Of a stretch of DNA of 64,000 nucleotides, positions 22,816 through 30,211 are shown one piece after another. Under the pieces are notes generated by a model. That model ran no database searches, was not told where the DNA came from, and saw only the letters and a list, made by a program, of their open reading frames with translations. This stretch comes from Kaistella faecalis (GTDB lineage: Bacteria; Bacteroidota; Bacteroidia; Flavobacteriales; Weeksellaceae): positions 558,001-622,000 of the forward strand of contig NZ_CP078067.1 of the NCBI RefSeq assembly GCF_019195395.1, read 5' to 3'. The position numbers and the translations under genes were made by a program. Every line of letters starts with the position of its first letter. The stretch's first letter is position 1.

Positions 22816-23030
22816 TTAATCAATATCATCAAAATGTCTTACTTAAGAATTACTGTGAATTTTTAAACCCTTCTAATTTGCAGCCAATGAGGCAATCTTC
22901 TGGCTGCTGAAGGGAACATTTCAGTTGTTTTACAGTGGACATTTAAAATACCTAATATCCTGTTGATCTGCTTTTTAAGAAATATTTAATACATAAAAAA
23001 ATTTCATCAACCCAAAAATTGTCTAACTTC

Positions 23031-24521
23031 ATGAAAGCATTTATGACAGCTACAGTTCGGGATATGGAAAAAAAACTTAATAACCAGGGCAACGACAGAA
23101 TTCTAACAGGATTTATCCTTGCAGTCCTCACGTTTTGGCTGTTTGCCAATTCAATGATGAATATTGGCCCTGTCATGGGTAAAGAATTGAGTTTACCATC
23201 GAATACCATAAATATTGCGGTATCCCTTGCAGCCTTATTTTCAGGGATTTTCGTGGTTGTTTTAGGAGGCTTGGCTGACCATATCGGCAGGGCAAAAATT
23301 CTTCGCACCGGACTTTACTTAAGCATCGCCGGATCTCTTCTGATTGCTGTAACCCCATCCGGAAAAGCAGCAGAACCTCTTTTACTGGCTGGTCGAGCTT
23401 TGCAGGGGCTTTCAGCTGCTTGCATTATGCCTACGAGTTTAGGTTTAGTTAAAATTCTGTGGGCAGGCTCTGCGCAGCAACGCGCTATCAGTTTTTGGAG
23501 CATGGGAACTTTTGGCGGCTCCGGCCTTTCAGCACTCTTTGCGGGAATTATCGCCACAAACTTAGGTTGGCGCTGGATTTTTGTTTTTTCAGTTCTGGTT
23601 GCTGCTTTATCACTTTATCTTTTAAAGAACTTGCCGGAAAGCAAAAAACAATCTTCCGGTAAATACATACCCGATTGGATCGGCATTGCAATTTTTCTGA
23701 TTTCAATGGTTTGTCTTGAACTTTTTATCACCAAAGGTGGTATTCTGGGGTGGCTCAGCTTAAATTCTGTACTGCTTTTTGCGGGCGCCATCATTTCCTT
23801 TGCAACATTTTACATCTATGAAACCCGTGCAGACAAACATTTTTTTGATTTCAGCTTATTTAAAAACAGAGTCTTTTCAGGAGCTATTATCTGTAATTTT
23901 CTAATGAATGCTGCTGCCGGAATCATCATTGTCGCCCTAACATTAATGCAGACCGCGGCAAATTACAGTGCCCAGCAGGCTGGTATGCTCACCTTAGGAT
24001 ATGCGGTTTCCGTCATAATGTTGATGAGAACCGGCGAACGGCTGATGAGAAAAATCGGCGCCAGAAAACCGATGGTCTGGGGCTCACTGATTGTTGCCAT
24101 TGCTACCGTTCTTTTAATGCAGACCTACGTAATGGCCGCAACCTACAGAGTTTTGGCATTGATAGCCTTTACTTTATTCGGAACCGGATTAGCACTCTTC
24201 GCGACGCCAGCCACTACGGCAGCACTATCGAATTTACCGGCCGAACAGTCAGGTGCGGGAGCAGGAATTTTTAAAATGGCTTCTTCACTTGGTGCCGGAT
24301 TTGGGATTGCCATTGCGGCGGGAATCTTCACCGCTGCTTCCAAAACCATTGAGGTTCAGGATTGGCTCTCTTCTCTTTTTTCGGGAAGACAGGACAATAT
24401 CAATTTCCGCCTCGCCGCCATGCCGGCATTGGCTTCGGTTCTGCTGTTTGCCTTACTTTCGGCCATCACGGCAGGATTTAAAATTCCAAAAGACGGCGGA
24501 AAATTAACTAACAATAAATAA
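23031..24521 (+). CDS. MFS drug transporter, DHA2 family (1)
   Basis: 496 aa from ATG 23031; an upstream TTG (23019) or internal ATGs (23043, 23064) are alternatives. About 14 hydrophobic segments, a motif A variant GGLADHIGRAKI between TM2 and TM3, and GRALQGLSAACIMPTSLGLV (motif C-like region). This fits EmrB/QacA proton-driven exporters. The protein is closely related to the product of the next gene. The stop and the next ATG are 2 nt apart. Confidence 0.9.
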   Translation: MKAFMTATVRDMEKKLNNQGNDRILTGFILAVLTFWLFANSMMNIGPVMGKELSLPSNTINIAVSLAALFSGIFVVVLGGLADHIGRAKILRTGLYLSIAGSLLIAVTPSGKAAEPLLLAGRALQGLSAACIMPTSLGLVKILWAGSAQQRAISFWSMGTFGGSGLSALFAGIIATNLGWRWIFVFSVLVAALSLYLLKNLPESKKQSSGKYIPDWIGIAIFLISMVCLELFITKGGILGWLSLNSVLLFAGAIISFATFYIYETRADKHFFDFSLFKNRVFSGAIICNFLMNAAAGIIIVALTLMQTAANYSAQQAGMLTLGYAVSVIMLMRTGERLMRKIGARKPMVWGSLIVAIATVLLMQTYVMAATYRVLALIAFTLFGTGLALFATPATTAALSNLPAEQSGAGAGIFKMASSLGAGFGIAIAAGIFTAASKTIEVQDWLSSLFSGRQDNINFRLAAMPALASVLLFALLSAITAGFKIPKDGGKLTNNK

Positions 24522-24523
24522 AA

Positions 24524-26002
24524 ATGAATGGTATGCAAAATTCAACAGCACAGCAATCTTACCGGGGTAACGACCGTTTGCTTTACGGGATTATCCTGGG
24601 GGTTTTAGCTTTCTGGCTATTCGCACAAACTACCCTTAACATTAATGTAGGAATGGCAAAGGATCTCGGGATGGAGCAAAACATGATGAATATCGCAGTA
24701 TCAATTACTTCGTTGTTCTCCGGGATCTTCATTGTGGTTTTAGGAGGTTTGGCTGACAGAATCGGCCGGGTAAAAATGATACAGATCGGTTTTATTTTCA
24801 GTATCATCGGTTCTGCTTTAGTGGCTGTAACGCCCAGCGGTGCATTGGCAACTCCGGTTTTAATGACAGGTAGAATCTTTCAGGGACTTTCGGGAGCTGC
24901 ACTCATGCCTGCAAGCTTAGCTCTGGTAAAAGCTTATTGGGACGGCGCCGCGAGGCAGCGGGCGGTGAGTCTCTGGTCCATCGGTTCATGGGGAGGTTCA
25001 GGATTCTGTGCGCTTTTCGGTGGTTTGGTAGCCTCTAATTTGGGATGGAGATATATTTTCTGGACAACTGTGGTGATATCCATCATCGGTTTTCTGATGG
25101 TAAAGGGAACTCCTGAAAGCAAAGGCGAAACCAAGGGTGATTATAAATTTGACCTTGCCGGGGTGATTACATTTATGCTTTCCATTATCGGACTGCAGAT
25201 TCTACTGAGTAAAGGAAGTTCTTTTGGCTGGACCAGCGGAATATCATTAGGACTATTTGCCGCATTTATGATTTTTGGATTCATTTTCTATAAACTGGAA
25301 TCGAAAAACAGCAGTGCATTTGTCGATTTTAAACTCTTCAAAAACTCTACTTACACCGGAGCAACAATTTCAAATTTCCTTTTGAATGCGACCGCCGGTA
25401 TCCTCATCGTTTCTCTTTCATTAGTTCAGTTGGGCGCAGGTTTAACTTCACAGGAATCCGGATTATTGACATTGGGCTACGCGATCGCCATCGTTTCCTT
25501 TATTCGTGTAGGTGAAAAACTGCTTCAGAAATTCGGGGCCAGAAAACCAATGATTTGGGGTTCGTTAATTGTCGGGCTCTCCATAATTCTTCTGATGCAA
25601 ACCCAGGTGATGACAGACACTTATAAAATTCTCGCGATGGTATCCTATACGTTATTTGGTTTGGGACTGGCATTTTATGCCACGCCGTCAACTGATGCAG
25701 CACTCTCTAACCTTCCGGAGGATCAGGCGGGAGCCGGAGCTGGAATCTACAAAATGGCTTCTTCTCTGGGAGCGGCATTGGGTGTCGCAGTTTCCGCAGC
25801 AATTTTCACCGCGCTGAGCGGCACGACAGGTTCTTTTGAGTGGATGGACGGTTTGATCAGTTTTGTCGGAAGACAGGATAATCTTGCATTGCGGCAGGGT
25901 GCAATGATCGCGCTGGGTGTGAATTTATTAATGGTTGTGCTGGCAATCATTTCGATCGTGCTTACCGTTCCGGATTATAAAAAACCGGCGCCGCAGCATT
26001 GA
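24524..26002 (+). CDS. MFS drug transporter, DHA2 family (2)
   Basis: 492 aa. It has the same layout as its upstream neighbour: GGLADRIGRVKM, GRIFQGLSGAALMPASLALV, a shared ARKPMIWGSLIVG block, and LSNLPEDQAGAGAGIYKMAS near the C-terminus. The 2-nt spacing indicates an operon and a tandem duplication. The substrate is unknown; the following amidohydrolase gene starts 43 bp downstream and may handle the same or a related compound. Confidence 0.9.
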   Translation: MNGMQNSTAQQSYRGNDRLLYGIILGVLAFWLFAQTTLNINVGMAKDLGMEQNMMNIAVSITSLFSGIFIVVLGGLADRIGRVKMIQIGFIFSIIGSALVAVTPSGALATPVLMTGRIFQGLSGAALMPASLALVKAYWDGAARQRAVSLWSIGSWGGSGFCALFGGLVASNLGWRYIFWTTVVISIIGFLMVKGTPESKGETKGDYKFDLAGVITFMLSIIGLQILLSKGSSFGWTSGISLGLFAAFMIFGFIFYKLESKNSSAFVDFKLFKNSTYTGATISNFLLNATAGILIVSLSLVQLGAGLTSQESGLLTLGYAIAIVSFIRVGEKLLQKFGARKPMIWGSLIVGLSIILLMQTQVMTDTYKILAMVSYTLFGLGLAFYATPSTDAALSNLPEDQAGAGAGIYKMASSLGAALGVAVSAAIFTALSGTTGSFEWMDGLISFVGRQDNLALRQGAMIALGVNLLMVVLAIISIVLTVPDYKKPAPQH

Positions 26003-27263: not shown

Positions 27264-27402
27264 GTATTTGAATTTTGCTATAATCCGGTACTGTTTATTT
27301 TCGTAAATTAGTGTCAGTAAAATCATACTCCACTGATAATGAATATGCAACATTCATAAATTGCATTAAAACACTTATTTCAGTACTGATAAAACTGCAG
27401 CC

Positions 27403-28263
27403 ATGAAGAAGAAACAACGCCATCTTCTGATCACCAAATCTTCCGGCCAGAAAGTCCCCTTCAATGTCGGAAAACTTAAAAATTCTCTGCAGCGGGCAGG
27501 TGCAAGTAATTTTCAGGCTGAGGAAATCATCGGTGAGGTGATTGCGATGCTGGTTGAAGGCATGTCGACTTCTAAAATCCATAAAGTAGCTTTGCGTTTG
27601 CTGAAAGGATATTCGCGGCCTATGGCAGCAAGATACAAACTGAAACAGGCGCTCCTGGAACTGGGTCCTTCAGGATTTCCCTTTGAACAGTATATTGCGG
27701 AACTTCTGAAATTTCAGGGCTATACAACCGAGAACGGAATTTTTCTAAAGGGACATTGCGTTACTCATGAAATTGATGTGATTGCAGAAAAAGATAAAAA
27801 GATAATGATTGAATGCAAATTCCATAACCGGCCCGGATATGTTTGCGACATCAAAATCCCACTGTATATCCGCTCCAGATTTGTTGATGTAGCGACATCC
27901 AAAAACATCGCAACAGGAATTACTGAAAAATTTGATCAGGGATGGATCATTACAAATACGCGGTTTTCCGAAGATGCCACAATTTACGCAAAGTGCATGA
28001 ATATGCAGTTGGTAAGCTGGGATTATCCGAGTAACAATGCCCTTAAAGACTGGATAGACTACTCCGGACTTCACCCTGTTACTTCCCTCACCACGCTTAC
28101 GCAAAAAGAAAAACAGGACCTGCTTGCGGAAAAAGTGGTGCTCTGTAAAAACCTCATTAATAACCATAAAGCTCTGGAGCAAATTGGAGTAAAGTCTCCA
28201 CGTCTCCAAAAAGTGGAGGCTGAATGCAAGGCGCTCTGTGAGCCTTATCCTGAAAAGCAATAA
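27403..28263 (+). CDS. ATP-cone + Mrr-type restriction endonuclease-like protein
   Basis: 286 aa. Residues ~8-95 form an ATP-cone, the nucleotide-sensing module of NrdR and ribonucleotide reductases (KSSGQKVPFNVGKLKNSLQR then MSTSKIHKVALRLL). Residues ~95-215 form a PD-(D/E)xK nuclease of the Mrr type: FEQYIAELL, D125 in HEIDVIAE, E137-C-K139 in MIECKFHN. A ~65-residue helical tail follows. Nucleotide-controlled cleavage of DNA or RNA is plausible but inferred. The next two genes (beta-CASP nuclease, P-loop ATPase) follow at 16- and 15-bp spacing. Confidence 0.85.
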   Translation: MKKKQRHLLITKSSGQKVPFNVGKLKNSLQRAGASNFQAEEIIGEVIAMLVEGMSTSKIHKVALRLLKGYSRPMAARYKLKQALLELGPSGFPFEQYIAELLKFQGYTTENGIFLKGHCVTHEIDVIAEKDKKIMIECKFHNRPGYVCDIKIPLYIRSRFVDVATSKNIATGITEKFDQGWIITNTRFSEDATIYAKCMNMQLVSWDYPSNNALKDWIDYSGLHPVTSLTTLTQKEKQDLLAEKVVLCKNLINNHKALEQIGVKSPRLQKVEAECKALCEPYPEKQ

Positions 28264-28279
28264 CTGAAAAACACGAATC

Positions 28280-29656
28280 ATGAATACCATCAACATCAAA
28301 TTTCTGGGAGCAGCGGGAACAGTGACCGGATCAAAACATCTTATTTCGGCTTACGGAAAAAACATCCTAGTAGACTGCGGACTTTTTCAAGGACTAAAAG
28401 AACTGCGGCTTATGAACTGGGAACCGCTGGAGTTTCCTGCCAGTGAAATCGATATGGTACTCCTTACCCACGGACATCTGGACCACACCGGTTATTTACC
28501 ACGGTTAGTAAAAGCTGGATTTTCAGGTCAGATTATCGGGACATCTCCTACCCTTCAAATCACCGAAATCATATTAAAAGACAGCGCAAAAATTCAGGAA
28601 GAAGATACCAACAGAGCGAATAGGTTCAGGTATTCAAAACACCATCCTGCACTGCCTTTATATAATCTTGATGACGTGAAGGAAACTTTGCCTTTATTCA
28701 AATCGAAACCGCTGAACGAATGGCAAAGCATCCACGAAAATATCCGCTACCGCTTCAGATATAACGGTCACATTATTGGTGCCACATTTATTGAACTTGA
28801 AATTGGCGATAAAACGCTGGTTTTCTCTGGTGATGTCGGCAGAGAAATCGATCCTTTGCTCTTTCCGCCTGAAAAGCCTGAGAAAGCAGACCTCCTTTTC
28901 ATTGAAGCCACATACGGAAACCGAACACACCCTGAAGATCCTGTGAGTGATGACCTGGAAAAACTCATCAACAGCTGTACCGACAGAAACGGTACCATCA
29001 TCATTCCAAGTTTTTCCGTGGAACGTACGCAGTTGCTCATGTACCTCTTTTGGCAGCTTAAAAAAAGGGGGAAAATGGCTAAAATCCCTATTTATATGGA
29101 CAGCCCCATGAGCAGAAACGTTCTGGAAGTTTTCCATCAGAACAGAGAGTGGCACAGGCTTTCTTATGACGATTATGATGAAATGTGTGATGAAATAAAA
29201 TTTATCAACACCGTAAATGAGACACTAGCTTTGGCAAAAGATTCACGTCCTAAAATCATCATCGCCGGAAGCGGAATGGCAGCTGGCGGACGGGTACTTA
29301 CCTATCTGGCAAAATATTTAGGCGATCCAAATGCAACGATTATGATGGCCGGATTTCAGGCAGAAGGCACCCGTGGAAGAGCTTTACTGGAAGGCGCAAA
29401 GGAAATAAAACTTTACGGAAAATACTTTACTGTACGTGCAAATATTGAAAACATTGAAGGTTTATCTGGCCATGCCGACCAAAACGGATTAATTGACTGG
29501 ATGCGAAAACTTACACAGCAGCCGGAAAAAATTTTCATCGTTCATGCTGAAAAAGAAGCTGCGGAAGGACTTCAGCAAAAAATTAAAGAAGTTTATCATT
29601 GGGATTCTGAAATCCCGAGACTTAACGACCAGGTGGAAATCCCTGTAAATGCGTAA
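28280..29656 (+). CDS. Metallo-beta-lactamase/beta-CASP RNA-processing exonuclease family protein
   Basis: 458 aa. Motif 2 HGHLDH (H64, H66, D68, H69) lies in LLTHGHLDHTGYLPRL. The beta-CASP region carries SFSVERTQLLMYLFW, IPIYMDSPMS and SGMAAGGRVLTYL, with a C-terminal LSGHADQNGLIDWM. It resembles CPSF73/YSH1-type bacterial ribonucleases. The product probably cleaves or trims RNA and is cytosolic. It is the middle gene of a three-gene unit. Confidence 0.93.
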   Translation: MNTINIKFLGAAGTVTGSKHLISAYGKNILVDCGLFQGLKELRLMNWEPLEFPASEIDMVLLTHGHLDHTGYLPRLVKAGFSGQIIGTSPTLQITEIILKDSAKIQEEDTNRANRFRYSKHHPALPLYNLDDVKETLPLFKSKPLNEWQSIHENIRYRFRYNGHIIGATFIELEIGDKTLVFSGDVGREIDPLLFPPEKPEKADLLFIEATYGNRTHPEDPVSDDLEKLINSCTDRNGTIIIPSFSVERTQLLMYLFWQLKKRGKMAKIPIYMDSPMSRNVLEVFHQNREWHRLSYDDYDEMCDEIKFINTVNETLALAKDSRPKIIIAGSGMAAGGRVLTYLAKYLGDPNATIMMAGFQAEGTRGRALLEGAKEIKLYGKYFTVRANIENIEGLSGHADQNGLIDWMRKLTQQPEKIFIVHAEKEAAEGLQQKIKEVYHWDSEIPRLNDQVEIPVNA

Positions 29657-29671
29657 AATTATTCGCTGATC

Positions 29672-30211
29672 ATGAAGCCTGAAAAAATTTCTACTCGATG
29701 GAACGTCATTACCGGTGGTCCCTGCACAGGCAAAACGACCGTTGTCAACATTCTGGCTCAACGAGGCTACAAAACTACCATTGAGTATGCAAGGCATTAT
29801 ATTGATCTGCAAAAAATTCAGGGGCGCACTGTTGAAGAAATCCGGAAGAATAAGAAAGAGTTTCAGCTCAGTGTACTCAACATGCAGATTGCGGAAGAAA
29901 ATTCCCTTGACCCGAATGAAACAGCTTATCTGGACCGTGCGTTGCCCGACGCCATGGCTTACCATCAGTTTCTGGGATTGGAACTTGATGAATTTCTCAT
30001 TCAGCAATGCCATAAATACCGTTATCACAGGGTTTTTATTCTGGACCGCCTGCCCTTAACCAACGATTATGCACGGCTGGAAGATGAATCTGAACAGCTC
30101 CGGATTCACAATCTTATCATTGAAGTTTATAAAAGTCTAGGCATTCCGCTCATTCACGTTCCTGTTTTGCCACCAGAAGAAAGGGTAGATTTTATTCTGA
30201 AAAATACTTAA
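29672..30211 (+). CDS. Small P-loop ATPase (AAA_28-like)
   Basis: 179 aa. Walker A is GGPCTGKTT (15-23). The TIEYARHYI, AYLDRALPDAMAY and RVFILDRLPL blocks fit the AAA_28/NadR-kinase-like family of small ATPases or kinases. The protein lacks other domains. It follows the beta-CASP gene by 15 bp and probably belongs to the same transcript; its substrate is unknown. Confidence 0.85.
   Translation: MKPEKISTRWNVITGGPCTGKTTVVNILAQRGYKTTIEYARHYIDLQKIQGRTVEEIRKNKKEFQLSVLNMQIAEENSLDPNETAYLDRALPDAMAYHQFLGLELDEFLIQQCHKYRYHRVFILDRLPLTNDYARLEDESEQLRIHNLIIEVYKSLGIPLIHVPVLPPEERVDFILKNT

What the first reader, a model, noticed from the sequence alone, without database searches (positions are those of the whole stretch)
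27403..30211. ATP-cone/Mrr nuclease, beta-CASP ribonuclease and small ATPase in one unit
An ATP-cone senses ATP/dATP; fused to an Mrr-type nuclease with intact D125 and E137-x-K139 it would make cleavage depend on nucleotide levels. It is followed at 16 and 15 bp by a beta-CASP MBL ribonuclease and a P-loop ATPase. A nucleotide-gated nucleic-acid processing or defence module is a reasonable guess; I know of no described role for this trio.
Basis: partly seen in the sequence, partly recalled or inferred. Interest (0 to 1): 0.6.

Follow-up and report, generated by a model that had tools for sequence, protein, structure and literature searches.

The report
Nucleotide-sensing RNA-recycling stress gene trio
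Three adjacent bacterial genes encode a nuclease with an ATP-sensing domain, an RNA-degrading enzyme and a small nucleotide-kinase-like protein; relatives sit in islands of low-oxygen, metal-stress and emergency-fermentation genes, so the trio probably recycles RNA when energy runs short rather than fighting phages.

Summary
At 27403-30211 lie an ATP-cone/Mrr nuclease with intact D125/E137/K139, a TTHA0252-type beta-CASP ribonuclease and a P-loop protein, with gaps of 16 and 15 bp. The third protein is better called nucleotide-kinase-like (AAA_28; nearest folds NadR, thymidylate kinase) than an ATPase. The conserved core is the first two genes: all 32 Bacteroidota beta-CASP genes at least 49% identical to this one lie beside an ATP-cone/Mrr gene; none of the 18 next-best do. 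The third gene is optional. In two otherwise matching islands it occupies the slot that elsewhere holds a phosphorylase plus a PRPP synthetase. Recurring neighbours are P-type metal ATPases, universal stress proteins, Hsp20, Crp/Fnr regulators, glycolysis enzymes and D-2-hydroxyacid dehydrogenase. In Bradyrhizobium a similarly annotated MBL/PRPP-synthetase/phosphorylase operon is published as microoxia-induced and FixK2-dependent. No defence signature was found. Most likely this is a horizontally spread, dispensable module in which adenylate sensing controls nucleic-acid breakdown and nucleotide salvage under energy or low-oxygen stress. Anatomy and linkage are shown; gating, substrates and induction here are inferred. 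Novelty: new variant of a known but mechanistically uncharacterised system.

The parts
27275..27303 (+). candidate Bacteroidota-type promoter (TTG-N18-TATTTTCG), about 100 bp upstream of gene 1
   Evidence: Pattern match, but 2 matches in the window against 2.3 expected by chance: weak, supported by position only
27403..28263 (+). gene 1: ATP-cone/Mrr-type nuclease, 286 aa
   Evidence: Pfam; 70 homologues with invariant D125, E137, K139; AlphaFold pLDDT 93; PDB 1y88 AF1548 E 3.7e-32
27427..27621 (+). ATP-cone domain of gene 1 (residues 9-73)
   Evidence: Pfam; fold matches NrdR and RNR ATP-cones, rmsd about 1.4-2.5 A over 72-94 residues; K12 invariant, T56 93%
27673..28017 (+). Mrr_cat PD-(D/E)XK nuclease domain of gene 1 (residues 91-205)
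   Evidence: Pfam; D125, E137, K139 and E95 invariant
28075..28233 (+). AF1548-like C-terminal domain of gene 1 (residues 225-277)
   Evidence: Pfam below cut-off for the window protein (21.9 vs 23.9 bits) but 22 of 36 homologues match at E<=0.01; structure alignment to 1y88 covers residues 88-282
28280..29656 (+). gene 2: beta-CASP metallo-beta-lactamase ribonuclease of TTHA0252 type, 458 aa
   Evidence: Pfam; PDB 2dkf TTHA0252 E 8.1e-69; HxHxDH and other metal-site residues conserved in 21 relatives
29027..29386 (+). Beta-Casp domain of gene 2
   Evidence: Pfam PF10996, 113.8 bits
29429..29617 (+). RMMBL RNA-specificity domain of gene 2
   Evidence: Pfam PF07521, 69.3 bits
29672..30211 (+). 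gene 3: AAA_28 P-loop nucleotide-kinase-like protein, 179 aa
   Evidence: Pfam PF13521; model pLDDT 82; best folds NadR, thymidylate kinase, deoxyadenosine kinase
29714..29740 (+). Walker A motif GGPCTGKTT of gene 3 (residues 15-23)
   Evidence: GGP.TGKT invariant in 11 linked homologues

Best explanation
The trio is a compact, horizontally spread RNA/nucleotide-scavenging module for energy or low-oxygen stress. The ATP-cone of protein 1 senses the adenine-nucleotide state and switches its Mrr-type nuclease. Protein 1 and the 5'-3' beta-CASP RNase (protein 2) break nucleic acid, most likely RNA, into nucleotides. Protein 3, a nucleoside/nucleotide-kinase-like P-loop protein, captures or routes the products. 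It takes the place of the phosphorylase and PRPP-synthetase pair that, in fuller versions of the island, could turn nucleotide ribose into phosphoribose for phosphoketolase, glycolysis and fermentation. Shown: domain anatomy, intact active sites, linkage of genes 1+2, stress/fermentation gene context of relatives, and slot exchange between gene 3 and phosphorylase+PRPP synthetase. Published for a similarly annotated proteobacterial operon: induction by microoxia. Inferred: nucleotide gating, RNA as substrate, kinase activity, and induction in this organism.
For: Invariant nuclease residues and ATP-cone K12; ATP-cone fold. Nearest solved relative of protein 2 is TTHA0252, a 5'-3' exoRNase affecting global mRNA (PMC4229858). 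All 32 MBLs at >=49% identity sit beside gene 1, against 0 of the 18 next-best. Gene 3 at >=58% identity occurs only in linked positions (3 of 3); all others are <=36%. Twin islands L074 and L076 share GAPDH, aldolase, PFK, 2-hydroxyacid dehydrogenase, USP, gene 1, gene 2 and P-type ATPase, with phosphorylase+PRPP synthetase in one and gene 3 in the other. P1B ATPase 24/67 vs 1/40 and USP 14/67 vs 1/40 in neighbourhoods vs control regions. Pontibacter and Criblamydia plasmids carry genes 1+2+phosphorylase+PRPP synthetase; Criblamydia adds phosphoketolase and acetate kinase. Bradyrhizobium bll3117-3116-3115 and phosphoketolase/acetate kinase are microoxia/FixK2-controlled. An ATP-cone is also fused to a glucoamylase-family enzyme close downstream of gene-1 homologues, suggesting a wider ATP-cone switch on polymer breakdown.
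Against: No biochemical data for any member of the ATP-cone/Mrr family were found. Two nucleotide-contact positions of the E. coli NrdA ATP-cone (R10, E15; own knowledge) are not conserved, so binding could be weak or lost. 22 of 54 gene-1 homologues have no adjacent gene 2, so gene 1 can act without it. The window's own genome lacks the phosphorylase and a dedicated PRPP synthetase, and the window trio itself has no stress-gene neighbours. No Fnr-type box upstream. Mrr-type nucleases usually cut DNA, so protein 1 may not act on RNA.
Confidence: 0.5

Rival explanations
1. Anti-phage defence: an infection-induced change of nucleotide pools releases the ATP-cone brake, and the nuclease plus RNase destroy phage or host nucleic acid, by analogy with Can2/Card1 sensor-nuclease effectors.
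For: Sensor + PD-(D/E)XK architecture; Can2, Card1 and Cdn1 are among the structural neighbours of the nuclease domain. Patchy distribution, 49/296 genomes, and a deletion scar in a sister genome.
Against: No PADLOC hit below E 0.001; no defence genes among recurring neighbours, which are metabolic and stress genes; the similarly annotated proteobacterial operon is oxygen-regulated. The Can2/Card1 similarity is shared by many PD-(D/E)XK folds.
Confidence: 0.12
2. Regulated mRNA processing or turnover: proteins 1 and 2 form an RNA-decay complex tuned to nucleotide supply, altering gene expression rather than harvesting nucleotides.
For: TTHA0252 disruption changes over 200 transcripts in Thermus. 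In eight Flavobacterium-type loci PNPase lies a few genes upstream.
Against: Too patchy and dispensable for a core decay machine (5 of 36 genomes of the genus carry the trio at this site and 4 more carry another version elsewhere); does not explain the phosphorylase/PRPP-synthetase partners.
Confidence: 0.2
3. DNA repair or DNA salvage: protein 1 cuts damaged or foreign DNA when dATP/ATP is unbalanced; the neighbours reflect general stress.
For: Mrr_cat and EndoMS-like structural neighbours act on DNA; ATP-cones classically read dATP/ATP in ribonucleotide reductase (PMC4390871).
Against: The tightly linked partner belongs to an RNA-degrading beta-CASP subfamily, and the exchangeable partners handle nucleosides/nucleotides.
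Confidence: 0.1

Closest known systems
Microoxia/FixK2-regulated MBL - PRPP synthetase - thymidine phosphorylase-family operon (Bradyrhizobium bll3117-bll3115) and the Burkholderia low-oxygen-activated (lxa) locus
   Same: Proteobacterial plasmid homologues of gene 2 at 41-46% identity lie with the same kinds of partner (P-type ATPases, USPs, Fnr, phosphoketolase); published microoxic induction and MBL protein raised in lxa
   Different: The proteobacterial loci read here have no ATP-cone/Mrr gene; the window has no phosphorylase or dedicated PRPP synthetase and carries an AAA_28 gene instead
AF1548 (PDB 1y88), Archaeoglobus protein of unknown function
   Same: Nuclease and C-terminal domains of protein 1: 34-35% identity, Z 21.9 over 182 residues
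   Different: The solved chain (184-199 residues) aligns only to residues 88-282 of protein 1, so it has no ATP-cone
TTHA0252, beta-CASP RNase of Thermus thermophilus
   Same: Nearly whole-length match of protein 2, E 8e-69
   Different: Not reported as part of an ATP-cone nuclease operon in the passages read
Can2/Card1/Cdn1 CRISPR ancillary nucleases
   Same: Nucleotide sensor domain plus PD-(D/E)XK nuclease
   Different: Their sensor is a CARF domain for cyclic oligoadenylate (own knowledge), not an ATP-cone; similarity is confined to the nuclease fold
NadR ribosylnicotinamide-kinase domain / thymidylate kinase
   Same: Fold of protein 3, TM 0.73 to NadR
   Different: Only 19% identity; substrate unknown

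Membership tests
ATP-cone (PF03477) | domain above curated cut-off, with ATP-cone fold | tested here: met
   32.2 vs 25.8 bits; 36 of 36 homologues match at E<=0.01; fold match to NrdR and RNR
ATP-cone (PF03477) | nucleotide-contact residues conserved | tested here: inconclusive
   K9 and T55 equivalents (K12, T56) conserved, R10 and E15 not, H59 is H60 here but Tyr in most homologues (E. coli residue roles from own knowledge)
Mrr-type PD-(D/E)XK nuclease | D...ExK catalytic triad | tested here: met
   D125, E137, K139 invariant in 70 homologues
Mrr-type PD-(D/E)XK nuclease | N-terminal winged-helix DNA-recognition domain of E. coli Mrr | tested here: not met
   The N-terminus is an ATP-cone; so a nuclease-domain relative, not an Mrr restriction enzyme
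TTHA0252-type beta-CASP RNase | MBL + Beta-Casp + RMMBL domains and HxHxDH metal site | tested here: met
Type VII CRISPR Cas14 | NCBIfam NF045584 equivalog cut-off and 612-residue length | tested here: not met
   384 bits vs cut-off 800; 458 aa, no C-terminal extension
FixK2/lxa-type MBL-PRPP synthetase-phosphorylase operon | homologous MBL gene | tested here: met
   41-46% identity, 97-100% coverage to proteobacterial plasmid MBLs with these neighbours; bll3115 itself could not be aligned
FixK2/lxa-type MBL-PRPP synthetase-phosphorylase operon | phosphorylase and dedicated PRPP-synthetase partners | tested here: not met
   Own genome: only a 24% partial hit and one 26%-identical PRPP-synthetase homologue far away
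FixK2/lxa-type MBL-PRPP synthetase-phosphorylase operon | induction by low oxygen | not testable with these tools
   No expression data for this organism; no Fnr-type box found upstream
AMP phosphorylase (TIGR03327), for the partner gene elsewhere | equivalog cut-off 535 bits | tested here: not met
   480 and 475 bits; falls in thymidine phosphorylase subfamily NF003338
Known anti-phage defence systems (PADLOC) | match to a system's protein models | tested here: not met
   No hit for protein 1; best E 0.0029 and 0.0051 for proteins 2 and 3
NadR/nucleotide kinase-like AAA_28 | Walker A and kinase-type P-loop fold | tested here: met
   catalytic activity untested

The most novel reading that the evidence does not exclude
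An undescribed class of adenylate-gated nucleases: an ATP-cone, known so far mainly from ribonucleotide reductase and NrdR, acts as an energy-charge switch on nucleic-acid (and, through the glucoamylase fusion, polysaccharide) breakdown, so that bacteria consume their own polymers for fuel when respiration fails.
Probability: 0.3. Interest if true: 0.8.

Novelty: new variant of a known kind. Interest (0 to 1): 0.55.

Why it matters
Low-oxygen and metal-stress islands repeatedly carry an MBL RNase with nucleotide-salvage enzymes, with no purpose explained in the papers found here. The ATP-cone/Mrr protein offers a concrete and simple biochemical test: does nuclease activity follow ATP/dATP/AMP? 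If so, controlled self-digestion of RNA becomes a testable bacterial energy-stress strategy, and the ATP-cone gains a function outside deoxynucleotide synthesis.

Tried and rejected
Defence: PADLOC, phages and viral contigs gave nothing supportive; faecal contigs labelled phage do hold beta-CASP genes, but these records are unannotated and gave no match to gene 1. Type VII CRISPR Cas14: rejected on score and length. Fnr-type box upstream: 0 exact in 69 loci, 20 with one mismatch against 11.5 in shuffles; window best is 2 mismatches. Promoter/terminator scans uninformative. Profile search of the ATP-cone alone against PDB was led by designed helical repeats, with RNR only at E 0.004. The search for related loci with the single protein found only one close relative. 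Literature searches for a described ATP-cone/Mrr protein found none; the original lxa paper is not held.

Full report
OBSERVATION. Pfam confirms ATP-cone + Mrr_cat, Lactamase_B + Beta-Casp + RMMBL, and AAA_28. The host is a Chryseobacterium-type bacterium: the nearest named record is Chryseobacterium sp. HSC-36S06, whose 1004323-base contig has the same length as the contig of G027, a genome of the window's genus.

PROTEIN 1. Across 70 homologues D125, E137, K139, E95, H122, E123 and the ATP-cone K12 are invariant. An AlphaFold model with 35 sequences has mean pLDDT 93. Its N-terminal part matches ATP-cones of NrdR and ribonucleotide reductase (rmsd about 1.4-2.5 A, Z about 8-9.5), and residues 88-282 match AF1548 (1y88, Z 21.9, 34% identity), a solved protein of unknown function without an ATP-cone; weaker neighbours are EndoMS, Card1, Can2, Cdn1. 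Aligned to E. coli NrdA, K9 and T55 are kept while R10 and E15 are not; the roles of those residues are from my own knowledge. So nucleotide binding is plausible but not assured.

PROTEINS 2 AND 3. Protein 2 is closest to TTHA0252 (E 8e-69), a 5'-3' exoRNase whose loss changes many mRNAs (PMC4229858). It is not Cas14 (384 vs 800 bits). Protein 3 has a Walker A motif and a model (pLDDT 82) nearest to NadR and to thymidylate and deoxyadenosine kinases, so 'nucleotide-kinase-like' replaces 'ATPase'.

CONSERVATION. Protein 1 relatives occur in 16/60 near relatives and 49/296 Bacteroidota genomes. Of 54 gene-1 places, 32 have gene 2 beside them. All 32 MBLs at >=49% identity to protein 2 are adjacent to gene 1, against 0 of the 18 next-best. 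This defines a dedicated MBL subfamily. Genes 1 and 2 nearly always lie within tens of bp or overlap (median 3 bp in 43 pairs, starts chosen mechanically). Gene 3 is found in 10/67 loci, and AAA_28 proteins with >=58% identity occur only there. The unit spreads as a block: within the genus one version is 76-91% identical to the window in all three proteins and another only about 45-61%, while a genome of another family has 62% and 70% identity for proteins 1 and 2. It is dispensable: the trio lies before aroE in 5 of 36 genomes of the genus, 4 more have another version elsewhere. In a sister genome (G035, L195 6728-6937) only a 70-codon piece of gene 3, by position its C-terminal part, remains between the M20 peptidase gene and aroE, a deletion scar.

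CONTEXT. Compared with 40 control regions of the same genomes, neighbourhoods hold P1B metal ATPases (24/67 vs 1/40), universal stress proteins (14/67 vs 1/40), Hsp20 (7 vs 0), Crp/Fnr (16 vs 3) and GAPDH (10 vs 0). These queries were drawn from the test loci and the loci are related by descent, so the P values are only indicative. Pontibacter and Criblamydia plasmids carry gene 1 - gene 2 - thymidine phosphorylase family - PRPP synthetase, Criblamydia with phosphoketolase, glucan phosphorylase and acetate kinase. In L074 and L076 the islands match nearly gene for gene (GAPDH, aldolase, PFK, 2-hydroxyacid dehydrogenase, USP, gene 1, gene 2 ... P-type ATPase), but phosphorylase+PRPP synthetase in L074 are replaced by gene 3 in L076. 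Proteobacterial plasmids have the MBL with phosphorylase, PRPP synthetase, phosphoketolase, P-type ATPases, USPs or Fnr, without gene 1 in the loci read. The phosphorylase scores below the AMP-phosphorylase cut-off, so its substrate is open.

LITERATURE. In Bradyrhizobium diazoefficiens, MBL (bll3115), PRPP synthetase (bll3116) and thymidine phosphorylase family (bll3117) are listed among proteins/genes changed under microoxia (PMC6515984). bll3115 and bll3117 fall 30.6- and 6.6-fold in a fixK2 deletion, with a FixK2 box before bll3117, and phosphoketolase and acetate kinase behave alike (PMC9104804). I could not align bll3115 itself; the equivalence rests on annotation, gene order and plasmid homologues. 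The lxa locus of B. cenocepacia encodes a 51-kDa MBL protein next to a Zn-alcohol dehydrogenase, raised in late infection isolates (PMC6127331); B. pyrrocinia shows a similar arrangement (MBL, Zn-alcohol dehydrogenase, three USPs, Fnr) around a 41% homologue of protein 2.

MECHANISM. Best reading: an adenylate-gated nuclease, an RNase and a nucleotide-kinase-like protein recycle nucleic acid under energy or oxygen stress. The pathway RNA -> NMP -> phosphoribose -> phosphoketolase/fermentation is inferred from gene content of fuller islands, not from this genome, which has no such phosphorylase and only a distant PRPP-synthetase homologue elsewhere. The ATP-cone fused to a glucoamylase-family enzyme less than 400 bp downstream of gene-1 homologues (L065, L066, L069) supports a wider ATP-cone role in polymer breakdown. 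Defence, RNA-regulation and DNA-repair rivals are listed with their tests.

VERDICT. Observation confirmed, interpretation partly supported; new variant of a known, mechanistically unexplained kind; interest 0.55.

Noticed in passing
L065:9351-10886, L066:1241-2776, L069:9317-10852: An ATP-cone domain fused to a putative glucoamylase (PF10091), a short distance downstream of the ATP-cone/Mrr gene; I know of no description of this fusion.
   Followed up: partly
L195:6728-6937: Sister genome G035 keeps only a 70-codon fragment of gene 3 (84% identical) between the M20 peptidase gene and aroE: scar of a deletion that removed the rest of the trio.
   Followed up: yes
L073, L079, L085, L097-L101 and others (22 places): ATP-cone/Mrr genes without the MBL partner, some with ferredoxin/CDGSH-like, glutaredoxin-like or S2P-CBS genes nearby; a second context of the family not explained here.
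   Followed up: partly
L102, L104, L106-L108, L111, L112, L114: In a Flavobacterium-like group genes 1+2 lie at one fixed place a few genes from PNPase, next to a TonB-type receptor and a small heavy-metal-associated-type protein.
   Followed up: no
window 23019-26002: Two tandem paralogous MFS transporter genes upstream of the M20 peptidase gene; in sister genomes they are present or absent together with it.
   Followed up: no
phage collection hits H63-H73: Unannotated faecal 'Bacteriophage sp.' contigs encode beta-CASP RNases, one at 44% identity to protein 2; possibly bacterial contamination.
   Followed up: no
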